DNA of 64,000 nucleotides from Nocardioides aurantiacus (GTDB taxonomy: Bacteria; Actinomycetota; Actinomycetes; Propionibacteriales; Nocardioidaceae). Of this stretch, positions 2,047 through 48,689 are shown in pieces. A program made the position numbers and the translations under genes. Each line of letters starts with the position of its first letter. Position 1 is the first letter of the stretch. The stretch lies in contig NZ_RKHO01000001.1 of assembly GCF_003752505.1 (NCBI RefSeq), positions 2,976,001 through 3,040,000 of the forward strand. Direction: 5' to 3'. Below the pieces are notes generated by a model that saw only the letters and a program-made list of their open reading frames with translations, ran no database searches and was not told the DNA's origin.

Positions 2047-2934
2047 TCAGGCGCTGAGCGACAGCGCCGACCAGATCTCGCGGGTCGCCTTGGAGCGGTT
2101 GAGCGTGTAGAAGTGCAGGCCCGGCGACCCCTCGGCGAGGAGGTCGTCGCACAGCTCGGTGGCGATCGCGATGCCCTCGGACCGCACGGCCGCGGGGTCG
2201 TCGGCGAGCGGCTCGATGCGGGACCGGACCTCCTCGGGGATGTCGCGCCCGGAGAGCTCCACCATCTTGGTCATCGAGGTGATGCCCAGGATCGGCATGA
2301 TGCCGGGGACGATCGGGATCGTGACCCCGGCGGCCCCGGCGCGCTCGACCAGCCCGAGGTAGTCCGAGGCGCGCAGCACCATCTCGGTGACGGCGAACTC
2401 CGCGCCCGCGTCCTGCTTGGCGCGCAGCACCGCGACGTCGTCGTCGAGCGTCGCCGCGTCGCGGTGGCCCTCGGGGAAGGCGGCGACGCCGACGCACAGG
2501 TCGCTGCTGCGCCGCACCAGCTCGACCAGCTCGTTGGCGTAGTCGACCCCGCCGGGCGTGGGCTCGAACGCCGTCCCCGGGCCACCGGGCGGGTCGCCGC
2601 GCAGCGCCAGGACGTTGCCGACACCGGACCCGCGGAGCGCCGCGAGGATGTCGAGCAGCTCGGCGGTGGTGTGGCCGACGCAGGTGAGGTGGGCCATCGG
2701 GAGCAGCGAGGTCTCCTGCGCGATCCGCGCCGTGATGGCCAGGGTGCGGTCGCGGGTGGTGCCGCCCGCGCCGTACGTCACGGAGACGAAGGAGGGCTGC
2801 AGGGGCTCCAGCTCGCTGATCGAGCGCCACAGGACGTCCTCGCCCGCCTCGTCCTTGGGCGGGAAGAACTCGAAGGAGAACGAGCGCTGTCCGCTCCCGA
2901 GCAGGTCGCCGATGCGCGCAGGGGTCCCGGACAT
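2047..2934 (-). CDS. metF: methylenetetrahydrofolate reductase
   Basis: Reduces 5,10-methylene-THF to 5-methyl-THF with FAD, supplying the methyl group for methionine synthesis. The 295-residue single-domain form is normal for bacteria (no eukaryotic regulatory domain). The FSFEFFPPKD segment contains the catalytic glutamate (Glu22 here). SVTYGAGGTTRDRT, HLTCVGH and LALRGDPP are folate/FAD barrel signatures, and the C-terminus (GLHFYTLNRS) is intact. ATG 2934 is chosen because a TATCCT hexamer lies 6 nt upstream; the open frame extends further but loses homology. It is divergent from the polyprenyl synthase, the arrangement found at Rv2172c-Rv2173 in M. tuberculosis. Confidence 0.95.
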   Translation of the reverse strand: MSGTPARIGDLLGSGQRSFSFEFFPPKDEAGEDVLWRSISELEPLQPSFVSVTYGAGGTTRDRTLAITARIAQETSLLPMAHLTCVGHTTAELLDILAALRGSGVGNVLALRGDPPGGPGTAFEPTPGGVDYANELVELVRRSSDLCVGVAAFPEGHRDAATLDDDVAVLRAKQDAGAEFAVTEMVLRASDYLGLVERAGAAGVTIPIVPGIMPILGITSMTKMVELSGRDIPEEVRSRIEPLADDPAAVRSEGIAIATELCDDLLAEGSPGLHFYTLNRSKATREIWSALSLSA

Positions 2935-2940
2935 GCTGCG

Positions 2941-2946
2941 AGGATA
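2941..2946 (-). promoter_or_regulatory. -10 hexamer, leaderless-type, metF
   Basis: TATCCT on the minus strand, 6 nt before the metF ATG at 2934. Confidence 0.5.
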
Positions 2947-2952
2947 CGGGGC

Positions 2953-2958
2953 TAGGCT
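2953..2958 (+). promoter_or_regulatory. -10 hexamer, leaderless-type, polyprenyl synthase
   Basis: TAGGCT, 6 nt before GTG 2965. Together with the metF hexamer, two opposed promoters fit into a 30-bp intergenic gap. Confidence 0.5.
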
Positions 2959-2964
2959 CACCCG

Positions 2965-4050
2965 GTGACCGTGCCGCACGCAGCGTGGGACACCGCCGGT
3001 TTCCGGACCTCGGTCGAGTCCACGCTCCTCGACTTCGTCGACGCGCAGGCCGCCTGGCTGGCCGAGCTGGGGCCCGACGCCGACCGGCTCGTCGCCCACG
3101 CCCGCACCAGCGTCACCGGCGGCAAGCGGCTGCGCGCCGCCTTCTGCTGGTGGGGCCACCACGCGATCGACGACGCCCCCCTCGACGACGCGGCGCAGAC
3201 CGCGCTGCTGCGGGCATGCGGTGCGCTGGAGCTGCTGCACGCCAGCGCTCTGGTGCACGACGACCTCATGGACGCCTCCGACACCCGGCGCGGCCACCCC
3301 TCGACCCACCGCGCGTTCGAGCGGCTGCACCGCGAGCAGGGGTGGCGCGGCGGCGCCGTGGAGTACGGCGCGTCGGCGGCCATCCTGCTCGGCGACCTGC
3401 TGCTCAGCTGGTCCGACGAGCTGCTGCGCACCTCAGGGCTGCCGGCCGAGCGCGTGCTGGAGGCGCTGCGCTTCCTCGACCTCACCCGCAGCGAGGTGGT
3501 GACGGGCCAGTTCCTCGACGTCTCCGCGCAGGCCCGCGGCACCGCCGACGTGGACACCGCGATGACGGTCCTGCGCTACAAGTCGGCGAAGTACAGCATC
3601 GAGCGGCCGCTGCACGTGGGCGCGGCGCTCGGCGGCGCGACGGCGGCCCAGGTCTCCGACCTGACCCGCTTCGGGCTCCCGCTCGGCGAGGCCTTCCAGC
3701 TGCGCGACGACGTGCTCGGCGTCTTCGGCGACCCGGCCGCGACCGGCAAGCCCGCGGGCGACGACCTGGTCGAGGGCAAGCGCACCGTGCTGGTCGCCCT
3801 CGCCCTCGACGCCCTCCCGCCGGAGCAGGGCCGACGTCTCGACGCCGCGCTCGGCACGCCGCTGGATCCCGACCAGGTGGCCGAGCTGCGCGACCTGATC
3901 AGCGCGAGCGGGGCGCTCGCGCAGCTGGAGCAGGTCATCGAGCACCTGACCGGCACGGCGCTCGGCGCCCTGGAGCGCGCCGAGGTCACCGACAGCGCCC
4001 GCACCGCCCTCGCCGGGCTGGCCGAGCAGGCCACGCAGCGCACGGTCTGA
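2965..4050 (+). CDS. idsA: polyprenyl (geranylgeranyl/farnesyl-type) diphosphate synthase
   Basis: Class I trans-prenyl chain synthase condensing IPP with allylic diphosphates; cytoplasmic, Mg-dependent. The 361-residue protein has the substrate-binding GGKRLR (52-57), the first aspartate-rich motif DDLMD (99-103) and the second at DD 248-249 (LRDDVLGVFGD). All the catalytic residues I looked for are present. Final chain length cannot be decided by eye. The gene occupies the place of idsA2 (Rv2173) in the mycobacterial order metF-idsA2-Rv2175c-pknL. The GTG start gives a probable leaderless mRNA. Confidence 0.93.
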   Translation: MTVPHAAWDTAGFRTSVESTLLDFVDAQAAWLAELGPDADRLVAHARTSVTGGKRLRAAFCWWGHHAIDDAPLDDAAQTALLRACGALELLHASALVHDDLMDASDTRRGHPSTHRAFERLHREQGWRGGAVEYGASAAILLGDLLLSWSDELLRTSGLPAERVLEALRFLDLTRSEVVTGQFLDVSAQARGTADVDTAMTVLRYKSAKYSIERPLHVGAALGGATAAQVSDLTRFGLPLGEAFQLRDDVLGVFGDPAATGKPAGDDLVEGKRTVLVALALDALPPEQGRRLDAALGTPLDPDQVAELRDLISASGALAQLEQVIEHLTGTALGALERAEVTDSARTALAGLAEQATQRTV

Positions 4051-4074
4051 GCCCGGGCCCCAGGAGGCGGGCCG

Positions 4075-4102
4075 TCAGGACAGGGCCATCAGGACAGGGC
4101 CA
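4075..4102. repeat. 14-bp tandem duplication at a stop codon
   Basis: TCAGGACAGGGCCA occurs twice back to back (4075-4088 and 4089-4102). The second copy encodes the last residues and stop of the Rv2175c-like gene, so the first is a duplicated tail just outside the reading frame. Confidence 0.9.
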
Positions 4103-4475
4103 TCGCCTGGGCGCGGCGCTTGACCTCCGAGCCGCGGTTCTCGCGCAGCGCGTCGATGGGACGGCCCGGCAGGGTGTCGTCCTCGGTGAAGAGCCAGGTC
4201 AGGATCTCGAGGTCGTCGTAGTGGCCGTCGTGCAGCAGCGTCAGCAGCCCGGGAACGCCCTTGACGATCTCGCCGTCCATGACCAGCGCGGCGGGGACCT
4301 GCTGGCCGGCCTTCGGGCGCGGCACGGCGGCGGCGAGCTGGTGCTCACGGATCCAGGTGCGCACCCGGCTGACCGTCACGCCGAGCGCCTCGGCGGTCTG
4401 CTTCCAGTCCCACCACTCGCCCACGAGGGCGTCGAGGTCGGCCGGCGGGGCGTCGGCGGTGTCGTCGTCACTCAC
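4089..4475 (-). CDS. Rv2175c-family DNA-binding protein
   Basis: Small winged-helix-type protein of 128 aa, closely resembling M. tuberculosis Rv2175c, a DNA-binding protein phosphorylated by PknL. WWDWKQTAEALGVTVSRVRTWI (residues 21-42) is the helix-turn-helix segment. The C-terminal half (DLEILTWLFTEDDTLPGRPIDALREN) is the family's signature. The N-terminal tail is acidic (DDDTADAPPADLD); in M. tuberculosis the phosphosite is a Thr near the N-terminus, and Thr6 is present here. It is divergent from the kinase gene at 4707, as Rv2175c is from pknL. The GTG start has a modest GGGAG upstream. Direct regulation by the neighbouring kinase is inference. Confidence 0.88.
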   Translation of the reverse strand: MSDDDTADAPPADLDALVGEWWDWKQTAEALGVTVSRVRTWIREHQLAAAVPRPKAGQQVPAALVMDGEIVKGVPGLLTLLHDGHYDDLEILTWLFTEDDTLPGRPIDALRENRGSEVKRRAQAMALS

Positions 4476-4562
4476 CGGCCCATGCTCCCACCCGATCGCC
4501 GGAGCGGCGTACTCGGCCGTAGATCCTGCTGCTGCGCCGGAGCCGTGGTCCCGGCGCGGCGC

Positions 4563-4590
4563 CGGTTTCCCAGGCGACCTTGGGAAACCG
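4563..4590. repeat. dispersed palindrome, GGTTTCCC family (copy A)
   Basis: Inverted repeat CGGTTTCCCA / TGGGAAACCG with an 8-nt centre, between the Rv2175c-like gene and the kinase. Read on the minus strand, the 26-nt core differs from the copy at 56410-56435 at only two positions. It is not near a gene end, so an operator or a REP-like mobile element are both possible. Confidence 0.75.
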
Positions 4591-4655
4591 AGCCCCCCAC
4601 CCGCGACTCCACGCCGACGGGGCGCACGGTCCCGGGCCGGGGCCCCCGCGCACCG

Positions 4656-4661
4656 TAAAGT
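4656..4661 (+). promoter_or_regulatory. -10 hexamer, PASTA kinase
   Basis: TAAAGT, predicting a transcript start near 4668 and a leader of about 40 nt. The leader contains a GGAG ribosome binding site 6 nt before GTG 4707. Confidence 0.45.
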
Positions 4662-4706
4662 GGCTGGTCAGTCGGGCTCTCTTCCCCACCCGCGCCGGAG
4701 GACACC

Positions 4707-6884
4707 GTGGACCGCACCCGTGACGCCCTGACCGGGCGCGTCCTGGACGGGCGCTACCGCCTCGGCGCCAGGATCGCCCGCGGCGGCATGGCCACCGTCC
4801 ACGAGGCCGTCGACCTGCGGCTGGACCGGCCGGTCGCGGTCAAGGTGATGCACGAGGGACTGGCCGCCGACGACGAGTTCGTGCGCCGCTTCCAGCGCGA
4901 GGCCCGCTCCGCCGCCCGCCTCTCCGACCCCCACGTCACCGCCGTCTTCGACACCGGCGACGACGACGGCACGCTGTTCCTCGTCATGGAGCTGGTGCCC
5001 GGGCGCACGCTGCGCGACCTGATCCGCTCCGAGGCGCCCGTCCAGCCGGCCCGGGCGCTCGCGCTCGTCGAGCCGGTCCTCTCCGCGCTCGCCGCCGCCC
5101 ACCGGGCCGGCATCGTCCACCGCGACGTCAAGCCCGAGAACGTGCTGCTCGCCGACGACGGCCGCGTCAAGGTCGCCGACTTCGGGCTGTCGCGGGCCGT
5201 CAACGCCGAGACCCAGCACTCCGCGACCGGCGGGGTGCTCATCGGCACCGTCTCCTACCTCGCGCCCGAGCTCGTTGTCGACGGCACCGCCGACGCACGC
5301 ACCGACGTGTACGCCGCCGGCGTGGTGCTGTTCGAGCTGCTCACCGGGAGCAAGCCGCACCAGGCCGAGAACCCGATCCAGGTCGCCTACAAGCACGTCC
5401 ACGAGGACGTCCCGCCCCCGTCGAGCCGGGTCCCAGGGCTGCCGGCCTACCTCGACGCCCTCGTCGCGCGGGCCACCTCGCGCGAGCCGGCGCTGCGGCC
5501 CGCGGACGCCCAGGTCCTCCTCCAGCAGGTACGCCGGGTCCGGCTGGCCCTCGACCAGGGGGTGCTCGAGGACGACGAGCTGACCACCGACCTCGCCCCC
5601 GTCGCCCTGGCCCGCTCGGCCGGCGGCGTGGTCGAGGAGCTCGACGCCGCGACCACCGACGAGATCCCCGACATCCTCGCCCCCGCCGAGGCGGCCCGCG
5701 CCGCCCGGAGCGACCTGACCGACCGGGCCGACCTGACCGACTCGGCCGACGACCACGAGCACACCCGCACCGTCCGGCGCGACGACCTCGGGGTCGACAC
5801 CGTCTACGACCAGGAGCAGGACCGGTCCCCCGACGGGTCGGGTGGACGCGGCGCCCTGCTGGCCCCGCCCCGGCCGCCCCAGCAGCGCCGCGGCGACGAC
5901 GGGGTCCCGGGCTGGGGGAGCGAGCGGCTGGTCGGCGGCCCGGGTGGCGACGGCCGCGACGAGGACCACGACGACGAGTGGCCGCACGAGCGTCGCCACC
6001 GTCGCGGACGCGGCCCCGTCGCGCTGCTGCTCGTGCTGCTCCTGGCCGCCGGTGCCGCCGGCGCCGGCTGGTGGTTCGGCGTCGGTCGCTACACCGACGC
6101 CCCGGCGGTGCTCGGGCTCTCGCAGGCGGCCGCCGAGTCGCGCCTCGAGGCGGCCGGCCTCGACCTGCGGGTCGGCGACCCGGCGTACAGCGAGACCGTG
6201 CCGCGCGGCCGGATCGTCGCCACCGACCCCGAACCGGGCGGCCGCGTCCTCCAGGACGGCACCGTCGTGGCCGTGCTCTCCCGCGGGCCCGAGCGCCACG
6301 ACGTCCCCGCGGTCGCCGGCCGCACCCTCGACGCCGCCCAGCAGGCCCTGCTCGACGCGCGGCTCGGGTTCGGCGAGGCCGTCGAGCGCTTCTCCCCCGA
6401 GGTCCCCAAGGGCCAGGTCGTCACCAGCGACCCCGTCGCCGGTACCGCGCTGCGCCGCGACGCGGCCGTCGACCTCGTGGTCAGCAAGGGCCCCCGGCCG
6501 ATCACGGTGCGCGACTGGACCGGCGAGGACGCCGACGAGGCGCAGGCGGCGCTGGAGAAGCGCGGCTTCGAGGTCGAGGTGAGCGAGGAGAACAGCGACA
6601 GCGTCGACGCCGAGACCGTGATCGGCCAGTCCCCCGACTCCGGCACCGCCTTCAAGGGCGACACCGTCGAGCTCACCGTGAGCAAGGGACCGGTCCTCGT
6701 GGAGGTCCCCGACGTGGTGCGCATGGGCGTCGCGGCGGCCACCGCCCGGCTCGAGGCGGCCGGCTTCGACGTCGAGGTGGAGGAGTCCAGCCTCTACATT
6801 GGGGTGCAGTACGTCGTGGCGACCGACCCCGGCGCCGGCGGCCGGGCACCCCGCGGCAGCACCGTCACGCTGAGCATCGTCTGA
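4707..6884 (+). CDS. pknL: Ser/Thr protein kinase with four PASTA domains
   Basis: Membrane receptor kinase of 725 aa. The cytoplasmic kinase domain (about 15-280) has the Gly-rich loop (ARGGMATV), Lys46 in VAVK, HRD 138-140 and DFG 158-160, so it looks active. A disordered acidic linker follows. One transmembrane helix lies near residues 435-455, preceded by a basic cluster, and four extracellular PASTA repeats run to the C-terminus. PASTA domains bind muropeptides/lipid II in relatives, so a cell-wall sensing role is likely. Its position beside the Rv2175c homologue marks it as the PknL orthologue by synteny, but M. tuberculosis PknL has no PASTA repeats. GTG start with GGAG 6 nt upstream. 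Confidence 0.92.
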   Translation: MDRTRDALTGRVLDGRYRLGARIARGGMATVHEAVDLRLDRPVAVKVMHEGLAADDEFVRRFQREARSAARLSDPHVTAVFDTGDDDGTLFLVMELVPGRTLRDLIRSEAPVQPARALALVEPVLSALAAAHRAGIVHRDVKPENVLLADDGRVKVADFGLSRAVNAETQHSATGGVLIGTVSYLAPELVVDGTADARTDVYAAGVVLFELLTGSKPHQAENPIQVAYKHVHEDVPPPSSRVPGLPAYLDALVARATSREPALRPADAQVLLQQVRRVRLALDQGVLEDDELTTDLAPVALARSAGGVVEELDAATTDEIPDILAPAEAARAARSDLTDRADLTDSADDHEHTRTVRRDDLGVDTVYDQEQDRSPDGSGGRGALLAPPRPPQQRRGDDGVPGWGSERLVGGPGGDGRDEDHDDEWPHERRHRRGRGPVALLLVLLLAAGAAGAGWWFGVGRYTDAPAVLGLSQAAAESRLEAAGLDLRVGDPAYSETVPRGRIVATDPEPGGRVLQDGTVVAVLSRGPERHDVPAVAGRTLDAAQQALLDARLGFGEAVERFSPEVPKGQVVTSDPVAGTALRRDAAVDLVVSKGPRPITVRDWTGEDADEAQAALEKRGFEVEVSEENSDSVDAETVIGQSPDSGTAFKGDTVELTVSKGPVLVEVPDVVRMGVAAATARLEAAGFDVEVEESSLYIGVQYVVATDPGAGGRAPRGSTVTLSIV

Positions 6885-45036: not shown

Positions 45037-45156
45037 AAGATCGTCGCTTTCGTTGGCGAAGCGATCCGAGGCCGCGTCGTGGCCGATCTTCGATCGAAGC
45101 GACTGGTGTCCGGGAGGCGTGCCGCTGGTCACGGACGTGCTGACCTGCTGGCGTCG

Positions 45157-45172
45157 GTCCTCCGACGAGGAC
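45157..45172 (-). ncRNA. pnp leader hairpin
   Basis: GTCCTC-CGAC-GAGGAC: a 6-bp stem with a tetraloop about 120 nt before the TTG start. PNPase genes in other bacteria have leader stems cleaved by RNase III for autoregulation; a similar role here is inference. Confidence 0.45.
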
Positions 45173-45254
45173 ACCAATCCCTACTACCGAGGACCGGGCC
45201 GCAGGGCTCGCGGACCACTCCTGGGGGGATCAGGGATGTAGTTGTGTTCTAGCA

Positions 45255-45734: not shown

Positions 45735-46574
45735 TCACGCGTGCGCGTGGGCCTCCAGGACACGACGTACGTCGCACAGGGTGGGCCGCGCCGCCGGGTC
45801 GGGGCGCAGGCACGCGAGCAGCAGGTCGCCCACGTCGGCGGGCACCAGGCCGGCCGGCAGCCGCGGCGCCCGGGGGGCACGTCGGTGCAGCACCGGCAGC
45901 CGCCGCCGGGAGTCCCAGGTCGCCTCGTCGCCGTGGGGCAGGTCCGAGGTGAGGGCCTCGACCAGGGTCACCGCCAGCCCCCAGACGTCGGTGGCGGGAC
46001 CGAGGCCGGTGCCACGGGCCTGCTCGGGCGCGAGGTAGCCGCGGGTGCCGGCACCCGGTCGTCCCTCCCCCGGTCGTCCGACGAGGCTGAGGTCGATGAG
46101 CGTCGCCCGGCCCCCGTCGACCACGACGTTGGCGGGCTTGACGTCGAGGTGCAGCCAGTCGTGGCGGTGCAGGTAGCCCAGCACCGAGACCAGCTGCAGC
46201 CCCAGCCCGGCGGTGTCGGCGAGGCCGAGCGGCTCGTCCTCGACCAGCGCCGCCAGCGTGGCGCCGCCGAGCACCTCCAGGACCAGCGCCGGGGGCTCCT
46301 CGTGGACCTCGTAGCACCGCACGAGGTGGGGGTGGGCGAGCGAGGAGAGGACCTCGCCCTCGCGTCGGGTCGCCGCGACGACCCGCGGCTCGTGGCGCCG
46401 GTCCGCGCGCAGCACCTTGACCACGCTGCGGCAGCCGCGGTCGAGGTCGCGGGCGTCGTAGGTGTCCATGCGGCGGCCGTGGGCGAGCAGCGCCACCACG
46501 ACCTGCCCCGGCAGCACCTGCTCCCCCGGCGGCACCGTGCCCGCCGGGACCACCGCCGCCCGCCGGCCGCTCAC
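45735..46574 (-). CDS. small cytoplasmic protein kinase with divergent motifs
   Basis: Eukaryotic-like kinase domain only, 279 aa, with no transmembrane helix or PASTA. Lys53 (VVKVL) and Glu73 form the usual pair. The catalytic loop is HLDVKPAN (His142, Asp144; Leu replaces the Arg of HRD). The DFG motif is DLS (Asp161). APE at 182-184 is intact. No Gly-rich loop of normal form is visible. Catalysis is plausible because both aspartates and the lysine remain. GTG 46574 overlaps the ABC gene's stop (GTGA), so it is coupled to the exporter. Modification of the adjacent Arg-rich peptide or the exporter is a hypothesis. Confidence 0.82.
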   Translation of the reverse strand: MSGRRAAVVPAGTVPPGEQVLPGQVVVALLAHGRRMDTYDARDLDRGCRSVVKVLRADRRHEPRVVAATRREGEVLSSLAHPHLVRCYEVHEEPPALVLEVLGGATLAALVEDEPLGLADTAGLGLQLVSVLGYLHRHDWLHLDVKPANVVVDGGRATLIDLSLVGRPGEGRPGAGTRGYLAPEQARGTGLGPATDVWGLAVTLVEALTSDLPHGDEATWDSRRRLPVLHRRAPRAPRLPAGLVPADVGDLLLACLRPDPAARPTLCDVRRVLEAHAHA

Positions 46575-48310
46575 GCCGGCACCGCCTGCAGCGAGGCGAG
46601 GTCGATCACGCGGTCGACGTGGGCGAGGACACGCGGGTCGTGGGTCAGCACCAGCACGGTGCGGCCGCGCTCGGCCGAGAGCGGCCCGAGCAGCCGCGCG
46701 GCCGCCTCGTCGTCGAGGCCGGTCGTCGGCTCGTCCAGCACCAGCACCGGGGCGTCGCGGAGCAGCGCCCGGGCCACGCACAGCCGCTGCCGCTGGCCGC
46801 CGGAGAGCAGCCGGCCCCGCTGGCCGACGCGGGCGTCGTACGCCCCGGGGAGGCGCTCGACGAACTCCTCGGCCCCCGCCCGGCGCACGGCGTCGCGCAC
46901 CGCGGCCCGCGAGGCTCCGGGGCTGCCGAGGGCCACGTTGTCGTGGACGCTGGCGTCGAGCAGCAGCGTCTCCTGGAGCACGATCGAGACCGACGCCCGC
47001 ACCGACTCCCGCGTGTGCTCGGCCAGGTCGTGCCCGTCCAGCAGCACCCTGCCCGCACCGGGCTCGAGGTGACGGGTGAGCAGGTAGGCGAGCGTCGACT
47101 TGCCGACACCGCTCGGGCCCACCAGCGCGACGCGCTCGCCCGCGGCGACCTCGAGGTCGAGGTCGCGGAGCACGTCGCGACCGGTCCCGGGGTAGCCCAC
47201 GGTGACGCCCCGCAGGCTGACCGCGCCGGGACCGCGCGGGAGAGCGGTCGCCCCGGGACGGTCCTGCGGCGCGGGCTCGTCGAGCAGCTCGACCACGCGC
47301 TCGACCCCGGCCGAGGCGGCGAACATCTCCGGCAGCAGGTCGCCGAGGTCGCGGGCGGGCCGGTAGCACTGCACCAGCAGGGTGAGGAAGGCGAGCAGGC
47401 CGCCGAGCGTCAGCCGCTCGGAGTCCAGCGCCCACACGCCCAGGGCGACCACGAGCAGCACGCCGAGCAGCTCGACGAGGTCGACCACGGGCAGGAAGAC
47501 GGCGCGCACCCGGCTCGAGGCGAGCTCGGCGGCCATGATGGCGCGGTTCTGCCGGTCGTACGCCGCCTCGGTCTCGCGCTCCGCGCCGGCGGTCTGCACG
47601 AGCGCCGCGCTCCCGAGGCTCTCCTCGGTGACCGAGCCGAGCGCCCCGCCCCGGCGGCGCCGCTCCCGGCTCAGGTCCTTGACGAGGTGGGCGAAGCGCG
47701 AGGAGACCCACCAGAAGGCGGGCACGACGACCAGCGAGGCCAGCGCGAGCTCCCACTGCAGGTAGAACAGCGCGCCGACGAAGAAAAGCAGCCGCAGCGC
47801 GGTCCCGACGACCTCGCTGAGCTGCCCGACCATGAAGGTCTCGACCTGCGCGATGTCGCCGCTGAGGCGCTGCAGCACGTCGCCGAGGCGGCGCTGGGCC
47901 AGCCGGGGCAGCGGCAGCGCGAGCGCGTGGGCGAAGGAGCGGCCGCGCAGCCGGACCAGGAAGTGCTGGGTGATCCAGGTGGAGAGGTAGTCGTCGGCGC
48001 CGGAGACGCCGGCGCTGAGCAGGTTGAGGCCGAGGTAGAACGCGACCAGCAGCGGCAGCGCCTCGAAGGAGGCGGGCACCAGGACGTCGTCGACGAGCCG
48101 CTGAAACAGCAGGATCTCGACCACCTCCACCGCCGGCGCCGCGGCCAGCAGGGCCAGCCCGAGCAGCAGGTGGCGGGAGTAGGGCCGCAGGTCGGGCCAG
48201 AACCGGCGTACGACCTGGGCGAGGGTGAGCCCGGGGGCCTCCTCGACCACCGGGGCGTCGTCGTGCTGGGGCCGGAGCAGGGCGCCGGCCCGCTGCCACC
48301 TCGTCGTCAT
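46571..48310 (-). CDS. ABC-type exporter (TMD-NBD half transporter)
   Basis: Type I exporter of 579 aa that should work as a homodimer. It has a 35-residue N-terminal tail, six transmembrane helices (about 45-330), then the ATPase domain: Walker A GPSGVGKST (398-406), signature LLSGGQRQR, Walker B VLVLDEPTTGLDD, and the H-loop in LTHDP. There is no C39 peptidase domain, so it does not itself cleave a leader. ATG 48310 has GAGGA upstream. It lies between an Arg-rich peptide gene (upstream) and a kinase gene (overlapping downstream), which points to peptide export. The cargo is not proven. Confidence 0.9.
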   Translation of the reverse strand: MTTRWQRAGALLRPQHDDAPVVEEAPGLTLAQVVRRFWPDLRPYSRHLLLGLALLAAAPAVEVVEILLFQRLVDDVLVPASFEALPLLVAFYLGLNLLSAGVSGADDYLSTWITQHFLVRLRGRSFAHALALPLPRLAQRRLGDVLQRLSGDIAQVETFMVGQLSEVVGTALRLLFFVGALFYLQWELALASLVVVPAFWWVSSRFAHLVKDLSRERRRRGGALGSVTEESLGSAALVQTAGAERETEAAYDRQNRAIMAAELASSRVRAVFLPVVDLVELLGVLLVVALGVWALDSERLTLGGLLAFLTLLVQCYRPARDLGDLLPEMFAASAGVERVVELLDEPAPQDRPGATALPRGPGAVSLRGVTVGYPGTGRDVLRDLDLEVAAGERVALVGPSGVGKSTLAYLLTRHLEPGAGRVLLDGHDLAEHTRESVRASVSIVLQETLLLDASVHDNVALGSPGASRAAVRDAVRRAGAEEFVERLPGAYDARVGQRGRLLSGGQRQRLCVARALLRDAPVLVLDEPTTGLDDEAAARLLGPLSAERGRTVLVLTHDPRVLAHVDRVIDLASLQAVPA

Positions 48311-48355
48311 CTCTCGCGTCCTCGCCGTGGGTTGCCGGTGCGTGCTCGAATGGCC

Positions 48356-48396
48356 GTCCGGGCGGGTGGCTCCCTGATCGAGCCACCCGCCCGGAC
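48356..48396 (-). terminator. 17-bp perfect hairpin between peptide and exporter genes
   Basis: Arms at 48356-48372 and 48380-48396 (GTCCGGGCGGGTGGCTC against its complement), loop CCTGATC. It starts 26 nt after the peptide stop and has no U-tract. A leaky terminator here would make far more peptide than exporter mRNA. Confidence 0.8.
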
Positions 48397-48421
48397 CTGT
48401 GCCTGCGGTGGTGCCGTGCCG

Positions 48422-48592
48422 TCAGTCGGTGCTGCGGCTGCGGGCCGCGCGACGGCGACGCAACCGCCGGCGCCGCATGATCCGGCGGCGCCGACGACGC
48501 CGGCGGCGACGCTGGTCGTCGGAGCTGTCCGAGCGCGCCGAGCGCGCCATCCGGGCCGGCTGGAGCGAGGCGAGGATCGTGGAGCGTGCCAT
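48422..48592 (-). CDS. 56-residue arginine-rich peptide
   Basis: Small protein with 24 Arg of 56 residues. Residues 1-27 (MARSTILASLQPARMARSAR then SDSSDDQ) form a milder, amphipathic, Ser/Asp-containing leader. Residues 28-48 are almost pure Arg (10 Arg, Ile-Met, 4 Arg, Leu, 4 Arg), and the tail is AARSRSTD. ATG 48592 has a very good ribosome binding site (AGGAAGG, 7 nt spacing), and third positions are mostly G/C, so I think it is translated. The plus strand is also open here but lacks a good start. It is upstream of an ABC exporter and kinase on the same strand. Function unknown: it could be an exported cationic peptide, a nucleic-acid binder, or a kinase substrate. Confidence 0.6.
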   Translation of the reverse strand: MARSTILASLQPARMARSARSDSSDDQRRRRRRRRRRIMRRRRLRRRRAARSRSTD

Positions 48593-48669
48593 GGTCGTGC
48601 CTTCCTGTGGGGTGGTCTTCCCTGACGAGGAGGACACTCCCGGTGGCGCGTGAGGTGCGGGTGAGGTCA

Positions 48670-48689
48670 GCGTGAGAGGGCTCTCACGC
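48670..48689. promoter_or_regulatory. palindrome upstream of the Arg-rich peptide gene
   Basis: GCGTGAGAG-GG-CTCTCACGC, perfect 9-bp arms, 78 bp upstream of ATG 48592 in the divergent gap with the molybdoenzyme gene. It looks like an operator for a dimeric regulator. No convincing -10 hexamer for the peptide gene was found. Confidence 0.5.

What the first reader, a model, noticed from the sequence alone, without database searches (positions are those of the whole stretch)
45735..48592. Candidate peptide system: Arg-rich peptide, attenuator hairpin, ABC exporter, protein kinase
Three minus-strand genes lie in order: a 56-residue peptide (24 Arg), a 17-bp hairpin, a homodimeric exporter without a peptidase domain, and a divergent kinase overlapping the exporter by 4 bp. 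The order resembles peptide-export loci in which the precursor is followed by a leaky terminator. Kinases modifying exported peptides are known in class III/IV lanthipeptide synthetases, but here the kinase stands alone with no cyclase and the peptide has no Cys. The Ser/Asp-rich leader (residues 21-27) could be a kinase target. Seen: gene order, ribosome binding sites, hairpin. Inferred: that they form one system.
Basis: partly seen in the sequence, partly recalled or inferred. Interest (0 to 1): 0.72.

Follow-up and report, generated by a model that had tools for sequence, protein, structure and literature searches.

The report
Exported low-complexity peptide with dedicated kinase
A tiny arginine-rich protein, a membrane pump and a protein kinase form a small cassette found across soil bacteria, in which the kinase appears to add phosphate to an unusually repetitive peptide that the pump probably sends out of the cell.

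Summary
A 56-residue, 24-Arg peptide, a 17-bp hairpin, an ABC exporter without peptidase domain and a Ser/Thr kinase (4-bp overlap) lie in that order on the minus strand. It is not chance: related exporters in several actinomycete families carry a short, compositionally extreme ORF with a ribosome site upstream (106 of 113 loci, against 10 of 111 and 13 of 113 control stretches). Many share an N-terminal hydrophobic-xx-hydrophobic-x-P motif; the rest varies wildly (R10-RSRS, HGHG, KPPP, GCRRRW, RTRTRT). Codons of the closest group show purifying selection (pN/pS 0.22). Kinase presence follows Ser/Thr in the peptide: 75 of 75 kinase-bearing rows have at least two Ser/Thr after residue 12, against 10 of 42 kinase-less rows; a correlated-evolution test gives p about 1.5e-7, while a stricter independent-pairs test is not significant. 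Elsewhere in this genome the nearest paralogous kinase sits behind a repeat protein with an apparent Sec signal, with the same promoter repeats, beside an OmpR-type two-component system. Best reading: a cassette for a phosphorylated, exported, disordered peptide. Export, phosphorylation and role are untested. No known family fits.

The parts
48650..48678 (-). Promoter-proximal direct repeats CTCTCAC-N6-CTCAC-N6-CTCAC (11-bp period), candidate OmpR/PhoB-type response-regulator site
   Evidence: Repeats of this kind before the peptide ATG in 26 of 29 Nocardioidaceae clade-A loci printed and 1 of 21 others; 5 sites with at most 1 mismatch in the own genome, 0 for the reversed pattern
48600..48606 (-). 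Ribosome-binding site AGGAAGG, 8 nt before the ATG
   Evidence: Read; similar purine-rich sites at the same place in relatives
48422..48592 (-). 56-aa Arg-rich peptide: leader MARSTILASLQPA, Ser/Asp stretch (SDSSDD), Arg tracts, RSRSTD end
   Evidence: Conserved upstream of the exporter in relatives; control scan; pN/pS 0.22 in a 14-member sister group and 0.51 in the 11-member group that holds the window peptide
48356..48396 (-). 17-bp perfect hairpin with 7-nt loop between peptide and exporter: candidate partial terminator or 3'-end stabiliser
   Evidence: perfect stem of at least 8 bp in 73 of 107 loci, better than all 40 shuffles in 65 of 107, median 10 against a shuffled mean of 5.5
46571..48310 (-). 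ABC exporter, 579 aa, one transmembrane and one nucleotide-binding domain, no peptidase domain
   Evidence: relatives
45735..46574 (-). Hanks-type Ser/Thr protein kinase, 279 aa, GTG start overlapping the exporter stop by 4 bp
   Evidence: behind the exporter in 44 of 45 Nocardioidaceae loci; catalytic Lys, His, Asp, Asn and metal Asp in 68 of 68 scorable rows

Best explanation
The three genes are an export cassette. A response regulator, probably that of an OmpR-type two-component system elsewhere in the genome, switches on transcription. The short peptide is made in excess because the hairpin behind it stops or stabilises most transcripts, while some run on into exporter and kinase. In the cytoplasm the kinase phosphorylates Ser/Thr of the peptide: first in the Ser/Asp stretch after the leader, in this clade probably also the C-terminal RS dipeptides. 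The exporter recognises the short hydrophobic leader ending in P-A and moves the disordered polyionic peptide out. Phosphate charges probably keep the polycation off nucleic acid and membrane inside the cell and ease its export; outside it acts on envelopes, its own or a competitor's. Shown: gene order, conservation, translation-level selection, leader motif, hairpin, kinase integrity, co-variation of kinase with Ser/Thr. Inferred: phosphorylation, export, regulator identity, extracellular role.
For: Peptide ORF upstream of the exporter in 106 of 113 loci against 10 of 111 further upstream, 13 of 113 on the other strand, 2 of 41 downstream, 0 of 7 own-genome paralogous exporters, 4 of 30 distant exporters, 0 of 6 nearest non-clade exporters; with the leader motif 85 of 113 against 0, 1, 0, 0, 1 and 0. 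pN/pS 0.22 in 14 peptides, 0.40-0.58 in six other groups. Hairpin in most loci. Catalytic residues intact in 68 of 68 scorable rows. 75 of 75 kinase-bearing rows have at least 2 Ser/Thr after residue 12, 10 of 42 kinase-less rows do; in the probable Streptomyces clade 29 of 29 against 2 of 10. Pagel-type test LR 37.4, p about 1.5e-7. In that clade Ser/Thr separates the two groups (AUC 0.97); of the other residues only Asp differs strongly, and the other way (AUC 0.15), as if Asp replaced phospho-Ser. The nearest own-genome paralog of the kinase (41% id) lies directly behind a repeat protein with an apparent Sec signal; such a Ser/Thr-Arg-Asp protein precedes that kinase in 26 of 30 loci, the promoter repeats occur in 19 of 30, and an OmpR-type regulator lies close by in 24 of 30.
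Against: No protein data: export and phosphorylation are not observed. The threshold of two Ser/Thr was chosen after seeing the sequences; with the first threshold (10% Ser/Thr) the counts were 57 of 64 against 3 of 35, and for an adjacent pair 64 of 75 against 5 of 42. Kinase state changes only 9 times on the tree; independent pairs give about 4 same-way, 0 opposite, the rest unchanged, of 7 (median p 0.125; earlier set p 0.25). The likelihood test has rates at or near their bound and rests on one quick tree. Two kinase-less peptides keep a Ser/Thr pair after the leader (L130, L164), and one kinase-bearing peptide has no pair (L252). Two loci have kinase and exporter but no peptide was found (L087, L134); one lost peptide and kinase but kept the exporter (L088). 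The hairpin is weak or missing in about a third of loci and has no U-tract in the window. The OmpR-type promoter repeats are almost confined to Nocardioidaceae clade A, and that regulator is near none of 45 Nocardioidaceae cassettes scanned. Cationic peptides of kinase-less clades show that charge neutralisation cannot be a general need of the exporter.
Confidence: 0.68

Rival explanations
1. The small ORF is a regulatory leader peptide: ribosomes stalling on the Arg run (arginine shortage, or a drug that arrests at basic motifs) open the hairpin and allow transcription of a drug exporter.
For: Arg-rich ORF followed by a strong hairpin and an exporter of the MsbA/multidrug type. That some drugs stall ribosomes at Arg/Lys motifs is recalled, not looked up.
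Against: In the sister group residues after the Arg run are conserved (NRSRSRSS/TN) and per-site change is mainly synonymous; the body of the peptide is replaced by HGHG, KPPP or GGW runs in relatives while a similar leader motif stays. A stalling peptide would not co-vary in Ser/Thr with a kinase. One genome has three identical tandem copies of the peptide gene.
Confidence: 0.08
2. The peptide is a cytoplasmic nucleic-acid-binding or protamine-like protein whose activity the kinase controls, as SR-protein kinases do; the exporter carries something else.
For: Poly-Arg and RS dipeptides resemble protamines and RS domains (resemblance recalled); the kinase co-varies with Ser/Thr. All loci were found through the exporter, so peptides without an exporter would have been missed.
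Against: Peptide and exporter stay together without the kinase in 39 of 104 peptide-bearing loci of known state. His/Gly, Asp-rich and Gly/Trp/Cys types would not bind nucleic acid alike. The shared element is a short hydrophobic N-terminal motif, as expected for a transporter signal.
Confidence: 0.12
3. The kinase acts on the exporter, or on other proteins, and merely travels with the peptide gene.
For: Kinase overlaps or closely follows the exporter gene; one locus keeps exporter and kinase after losing the peptide (L087) and in another no peptide was found (L134).
Against: Kinase-bearing rows have at least two Ser/Thr in the peptide (75 of 75) and kinase-less rows usually do not (32 of 42), correlated-evolution p about 1.5e-7; the paralogous kinase also sits behind a Ser/Thr-rich protein with an apparent Sec signal.
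Confidence: 0.12

Closest known systems
Phosphorylated lasso peptides (paeninodin PadeK / ThcoK / PsmK)
   Same: A stand-alone kinase gene in a peptide cluster phosphorylates Ser of the unmodified precursor (PMC9266682, passages seen)
   Different: Those clusters need B and C proteins that thread the peptide; here none is in the cassette, the peptide is low-complexity, and the kinase is of the Hanks type
Class III/IV lanthipeptide synthetases (LanKC, LanL)
   Same: Hanks-like kinase domain acting on Ser/Thr of a short precursor; the window kinase scores 84.5 bits with the LanL model, far below its cut-off of 650
   Different: No lyase, no LanC-like domain, no Cys in the window peptide
Bacteriocin or peptide-export operons with an internal terminator between precursor and exporter (recalled)
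   Same: Order precursor, hairpin, ABC exporter; small locus
   Different: No peptidase domain and no double-glycine leader in the window peptide; a different short motif, hydrophobic-x-P-[A/T/V/L], is shared by many members; no activity known
Eukaryotic SR proteins with SR protein kinases (recalled, not looked up)
   Same: Ser/Thr kinase with RS-dipeptide substrates
   Different: Bacterial, exporter-linked, and the substrate body is not always RS

Membership tests
Class III/IV lanthipeptide system | Synthetase with lyase, kinase and LanC-like cyclase domains | tested here: not met
   Pfam on the kinase gives kinase families only; LanL model 84.5 bits against cut-off 650; no fourth gene in the window cassette
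Class III/IV lanthipeptide system | Cys in the core to form lanthionine or labionin | tested here: not met
   No Cys in the window peptide; Cys in 5 of 76 peptides of kinase-bearing loci
Lasso peptide system | B (leader protease) and C (cyclase) genes | tested here: not met
   Window cassette has three genes; flanks are ribosomal S15, PNPase and a molybdopterin oxidoreductase
Lasso peptide system | Kinase phosphorylates the precursor | not testable with these tools
   Needs an in vitro assay
Double-glycine peptide / bacteriocin exporter (PCAT) | N-terminal peptidase C39 domain and GG leader | tested here: not met
   Only ABC_membrane and ABC_tran as transporter domains in the window exporter and two relatives; no GG in the window peptide
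Hanks-type Ser/Thr kinase | Conserved Lys, HxDxKxxN and Asp of the metal site | tested here: met
   68 of 68 scorable rows for K, H, D, N and D (4 of 72 rows gapped); the catalytic-loop Lys is Arg in 8. The column I first took for the helix-C Glu was not conserved; the Glu two places before it is conserved in over 70%
Type IV (MsbA/multidrug-like) ABC exporter | Transmembrane and nucleotide-binding domain in one chain | tested here: met
RiPP in general | Ribosomal peptide modified after translation and exported | not testable with these tools
   Modification and export are inferred from co-variation and gene order only

The most novel reading that the evidence does not exclude
Actinomycetes hold a general pathway for secreted phosphopeptides and phosphoproteins: cytoplasmic Hanks-type kinases of one lineage, each paired with its own low-complexity Ser/Thr-rich substrate, phosphorylate it before it leaves by a dedicated ABC exporter (peptide branch) or by Sec (repeat-protein branch), under envelope-type regulators: an OmpR-type two-component system in Nocardioidaceae and a sigma/anti-sigma pair in the probable Streptomyces clade. 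The exporter clade carries intrinsically disordered polyionic peptides of almost any composition, selected by a short N-terminal hydrophobic-P-A motif.
Probability: 0.42. Interest if true: 0.9.

Novelty: new variant of a known kind. Interest (0 to 1): 0.8.

Why it matters
If true, this is a widespread and overlooked class of exported bacterial peptides. Ten of them matched no NCBIfam family apart from one hit far below its cut-off, and the window peptide matched no Pfam family. Each kinase comes with a likely substrate next door, which is useful because physiological substrates of bacterial Ser/Thr kinases are usually hard to assign (recalled). It would also mean an ABC exporter that handles poly-Arg, His-Gly, Lys-Pro and Trp-Arg chains, although dense positive charge is reported to block secretion by ABC transporters (PMC9223453, abstract seen). 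The kinase-less natural variants give an evolutionary control for what phosphorylation does.

Tried and rejected
Leader-peptide attenuation was considered and rejected on codon-level selection, conservation after the Arg run, and replacement of the peptide body across relatives. Lanthipeptide and lasso membership were rejected. No credible Rfam match in the peptide-exporter gap; the one credible match nearby is Actino-pnp before pnp, just under its gathering score. Plasmid carriage: no match at E 1e-90 in the plasmid collection. Literature: seven full-text searches showed no description of this cassette in the rows listed (searches list only 15 of 27, 12 of 58 and 10 of 103 papers). Of three papers opened I saw passages or abstract and outline. 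This is absence from one open-access library only. The independent-pairs test cannot reach significance with so few changes, so I added a Pagel-type test of my own: one quick tree, bounded rates, asymptotic chi-square. One search scanned loci without turning minus-strand ones; one search replaced it.

Rows dropped before counts. From I took loci for 30 of 80 places, the best-scoring; all 42 places are covered. One search pooled 120 distinct loci; 13 loci had no acceptable upstream peptide on inspection (L087, L088, L101, L107-L112, L134, L135, L144, L176; L101 is cut by a contig end, L135 has a candidate on the other strand), leaving 107 peptides; the starts of two (L068, L071) were set by hand. 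One search used the 114 clade loci (L107-L112 apart), 113 with enough upstream sequence; kinase state unknown for 4 loci cut by contig ends. One search used 61 of the 107 peptides, in seven groups that I chose; 117 rows; left out were L208 (peptide pick and kinase out of frame), L211 and six earlier rows whose exporter translation was too short for the tree (L140, L161, L175, L178, L183, L186), duplicates, and loci without peptide or with unknown kinase. With the earlier six put back the counts are 76 of 76 and 11 of 46. Kinase absence in rows with 1.5-kb flanks means absence within about 1.4-1.5 kb; L160 and L164 were rechecked over about 3.9 kb. picked, per locus, the signal-like ORF with the highest Ser/Thr fraction, by a crude pattern, not a signal-peptide predictor.
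Full report
OBSERVATION. All elements exist at the stated places. The peptide starts at ATG 48592 on the minus strand with AGGAAGG eight bases before it, has 56 residues, 24 Arg and no Cys. The hairpin is a perfect 17-bp stem with a 7-base loop at 48396-48356. The exporter has one transmembrane and one ATPase domain and no peptidase domain, and the kinase is a Hanks-type enzyme overlapping it by GTGA. Downstream lie ribosomal protein S15 and PNPase; upstream, divergent, a molybdopterin oxidoreductase.

CONSERVATION. Exporter relatives were sought in whole genomes: 42 of 341 in the family at E 1e-110, 40 of 391 in the order at 1e-90, 17 of 394 in the class at 1e-95, 17 of 100 in family f20 at 1e-95 and 2 of 5 in f16 at 1e-95; with an exporter of genus g77 (probably Streptomyces) as query, 53 of 199 g77 genomes at 1e-100 and 42 of 392 at 1e-200. 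From the first six of these searches I pooled 120 distinct loci, taking 30 of 80 places. In close relatives the upstream peptide is MARSGILTALAPAVQARRGDSSSDDG-R10-NRSRSRSRSS and variants; one genome has three identical copies in tandem, 218 bp apart. A control scan (ATG, Shine-Dalgarno match of at least 4, 25-90 aa, four residues making up at least 65% after residue 12; rules set after I had seen the peptides) found such an ORF in 106 of 113 loci, against 10 of 111 just further upstream, 13 of 113 on the other strand, 2 of 41 downstream, 0 of 7 paralogous exporters of the own genome, 4 of 30 distant exporters and 0 of 6 nearest non-clade exporters. With the leader motif the figures are 85 of 113 against 0, 1, 0, 0, 1 and 0.

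THE PEPTIDE FAMILY. Many first 10-13 residues share a motif, hydrophobic-xx-hydrophobic-x-P-[A/T/V/L] or its shorter form: LASLQPA, SSLFPA, KIAPV, KLAPL, LFPT. The fixed pattern missed 28 of 113 loci; L080-L086, L100, L102 and L133 are among the peptides without a P-A. The rest is extreme and changes between clades: Arg tracts with RS dipeptides, RG/TRTRT, SKSYSKSYS, HGHGHG, KPKSKQLPPPP, GCGCRRRRCGCRRRW, RGGYGRGG. Per-site synonymous change exceeds non-synonymous change in all seven groups tested: pooled pN/pS 0.22 in 14 peptides of a sister group, 0.40-0.58 in six others, 0.51 in the group with the window peptide. Third-position G+C bias should lower pS, so the ratios are probably conservative (inference). 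A hairpin between peptide and exporter is usual: perfect stem of at least 8 bp in 73 of 107, better than all 40 shuffles in 65 of 107. In some Lys/Pro-type loci a T run follows, as in an intrinsic terminator; in the window it does not.

SURROUNDINGS. In 18 loci whose neighbours I listed the genes beyond the cassette mostly differ; five flanking genes were checked with Pfam. The exception is the probable Streptomyces clade. There a relative of one anti-sigma-like gene (weak zinc-finger match) lies within reach in 37 of 45 loci read, two of which are repeats, so 35 of 43; next to it, where the stretch is long enough, lies a sigma factor with regions 2 and 4. A promoter-like CCATCC-N15/19-CGTAT lies upstream in 23 of the 45 loci, in 0 control stretches further upstream and in 0 of 97 loci of other clades. 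So that clade seems to be run by a sigma/anti-sigma pair.

KINASE AND SERINE/THREONINE. The kinase stands behind the exporter in 44 of 45 Nocardioidaceae loci and in most of one probable Streptomyces clade, and was not found in the Lys/Pro, Gly/Trp/Cys/Arg and several other clades. Catalytic Lys, His, Asp, Asn and metal Asp are intact in 68 of 68 scorable rows. Ser/Thr fraction after residue 12 has median 0.21 in 65 kinase-bearing and 0.026 in 39 kinase-less peptides. I then looked for kinase losses in the probable Streptomyces clade with new genomes. All 29 kinase-bearing rows there have at least two Ser/Thr after residue 12; in three it is a single pair inside a long His/Asp/Gly chain (DFTSRD, DESSFE, DRSSEH). 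Of 10 rows without an intact kinase, 7 have none and 1 has one. The two exceptions are L130, whose kinase gene has lost its core but leaves remnants, and L164. Over all 117 rows the count is 75 of 75 against 10 of 42; for an adjacent Ser/Thr pair 64 of 75 against 5 of 42. The cut at two was chosen after seeing the data; my first cut, 10% Ser/Thr, gave 57 of 64 against 3 of 35. Independent pairs go the same way about 4.3 times and never the other way in 7, which cannot reach 0.05; a Pagel-type likelihood test that I wrote gives LR 37.4, p about 1.5e-7, with rates at or near their bound. In the same clade Ser/Thr content separates the groups (AUC 0.97) and Asp runs opposite (0.15), as if encoded Asp stood in for phospho-Ser.

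A SECOND CASE IN THE SAME GENOME. The promoter of the window peptide carries CTCTCAC-N6-CTCAC-N6-CTCAC. Repeats of this kind precede the peptide in 26 of 29 clade-A loci printed and in 1 of 21 others. The own genome has five sites with at most one mismatch, and none for the reversed pattern. Two of them lie in one locus, L199: a protein with an apparent Sec-type signal (judged by eye) and PQTRD/TTRD repeats, a kinase directly behind it, and an OmpR-type regulator with histidine kinase. That kinase is the nearest paralog of the window kinase (41% identity, E 1e-29; the next is 9e-18). It has relatives at E 1e-60 in 42 of 100 family genomes. Of the 30 loci taken, 26 have a signal-like Ser/Thr-Arg-Asp protein directly upstream and 19 have the promoter repeats (two loci begin too near the contig end, and the scan preferred Ser/Thr-rich candidates); 24 have the regulator close downstream. 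None of 45 Nocardioidaceae cassette loci scanned has that regulator close by. A further site lies before a PepSY lipoprotein gene, which suggests an envelope signal (inference).

MECHANISM. My reading is that the regulator induces the cassette, the hairpin sets a high peptide-to-exporter ratio, the kinase phosphorylates the peptide after the leader and, in this clade, perhaps at the RS dipeptides, and the exporter moves it out by its leader. The window peptide has 24 Arg, 4 Asp and 10 Ser/Thr, so full phosphorylation would roughly cancel its charge. Dense positive charge is reported to hinder secretion by ABC transporters (PMC9223453, abstract). But peptides of kinase-less clades are cationic too, so this cannot be a rule. 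What the peptide does outside is open: an envelope-binding or antagonistic role fits its variety and patchy spread, but nothing here tests it.

STANDING. No known family fits on tested features: no lanthipeptide cyclase or lyase, no lasso genes, no double-glycine leader or peptidase. It works like a peptide-export locus with a tailoring kinase, for which phosphorylated lasso peptides are the closest precedent (PMC9266682, passages). Whether export and phosphorylation happen must be shown at the bench.

Noticed in passing
L199 (own genome C1:1233000-1243500), 2638-6350: Protein with apparent Sec signal and PQTRD/TTRD repeats, Ser/Thr kinase, OmpR-type regulator and histidine kinase, with the promoter repeats of the window cassette; such kinases occur in 42 of 100 family genomes.
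   Followed up: partly
L130, L131, L132 and other loci of the probable Streptomyces clade: A sigma factor and an anti-sigma-like gene lie beside the cassette, and a CCATCC-CGTAT promoter-like element precedes the peptide in about half of the loci.
   Followed up: partly
L087 and L088: The peptide gene is gone while promoter repeats and hairpin remain; by eye the exporter reading frame seems to start at the promoter and run through the hairpin. In L088 the kinase is gone too.
   Followed up: partly
L089, 698-546, 480-328 and 262-110 nt upstream of the exporter match: Three identical peptide genes in tandem, 218 bp apart.
   Followed up: yes
L135, upstream of the exporter, opposite strand: By eye, a His/Lys/Pro-rich small ORF appears to be encoded divergently from the exporter.
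   Followed up: no
L200 2669-3289 (-) and L201 3214 in the own genome: The same promoter repeats precede a PepSY lipoprotein gene and lie in an ArsR/APH region.
   Followed up: partly
window 45082-45198 (-): Actino-pnp RNA before pnp, 46.8 bits against a gathering score of 47.7.
   Followed up: no
L080, L083, L086 upstream regions: A different conserved promoter element (GTCCTAGTACCAACGGACATCTG and variants) precedes the RG/TRTRT-type peptides.
   Followed up: no
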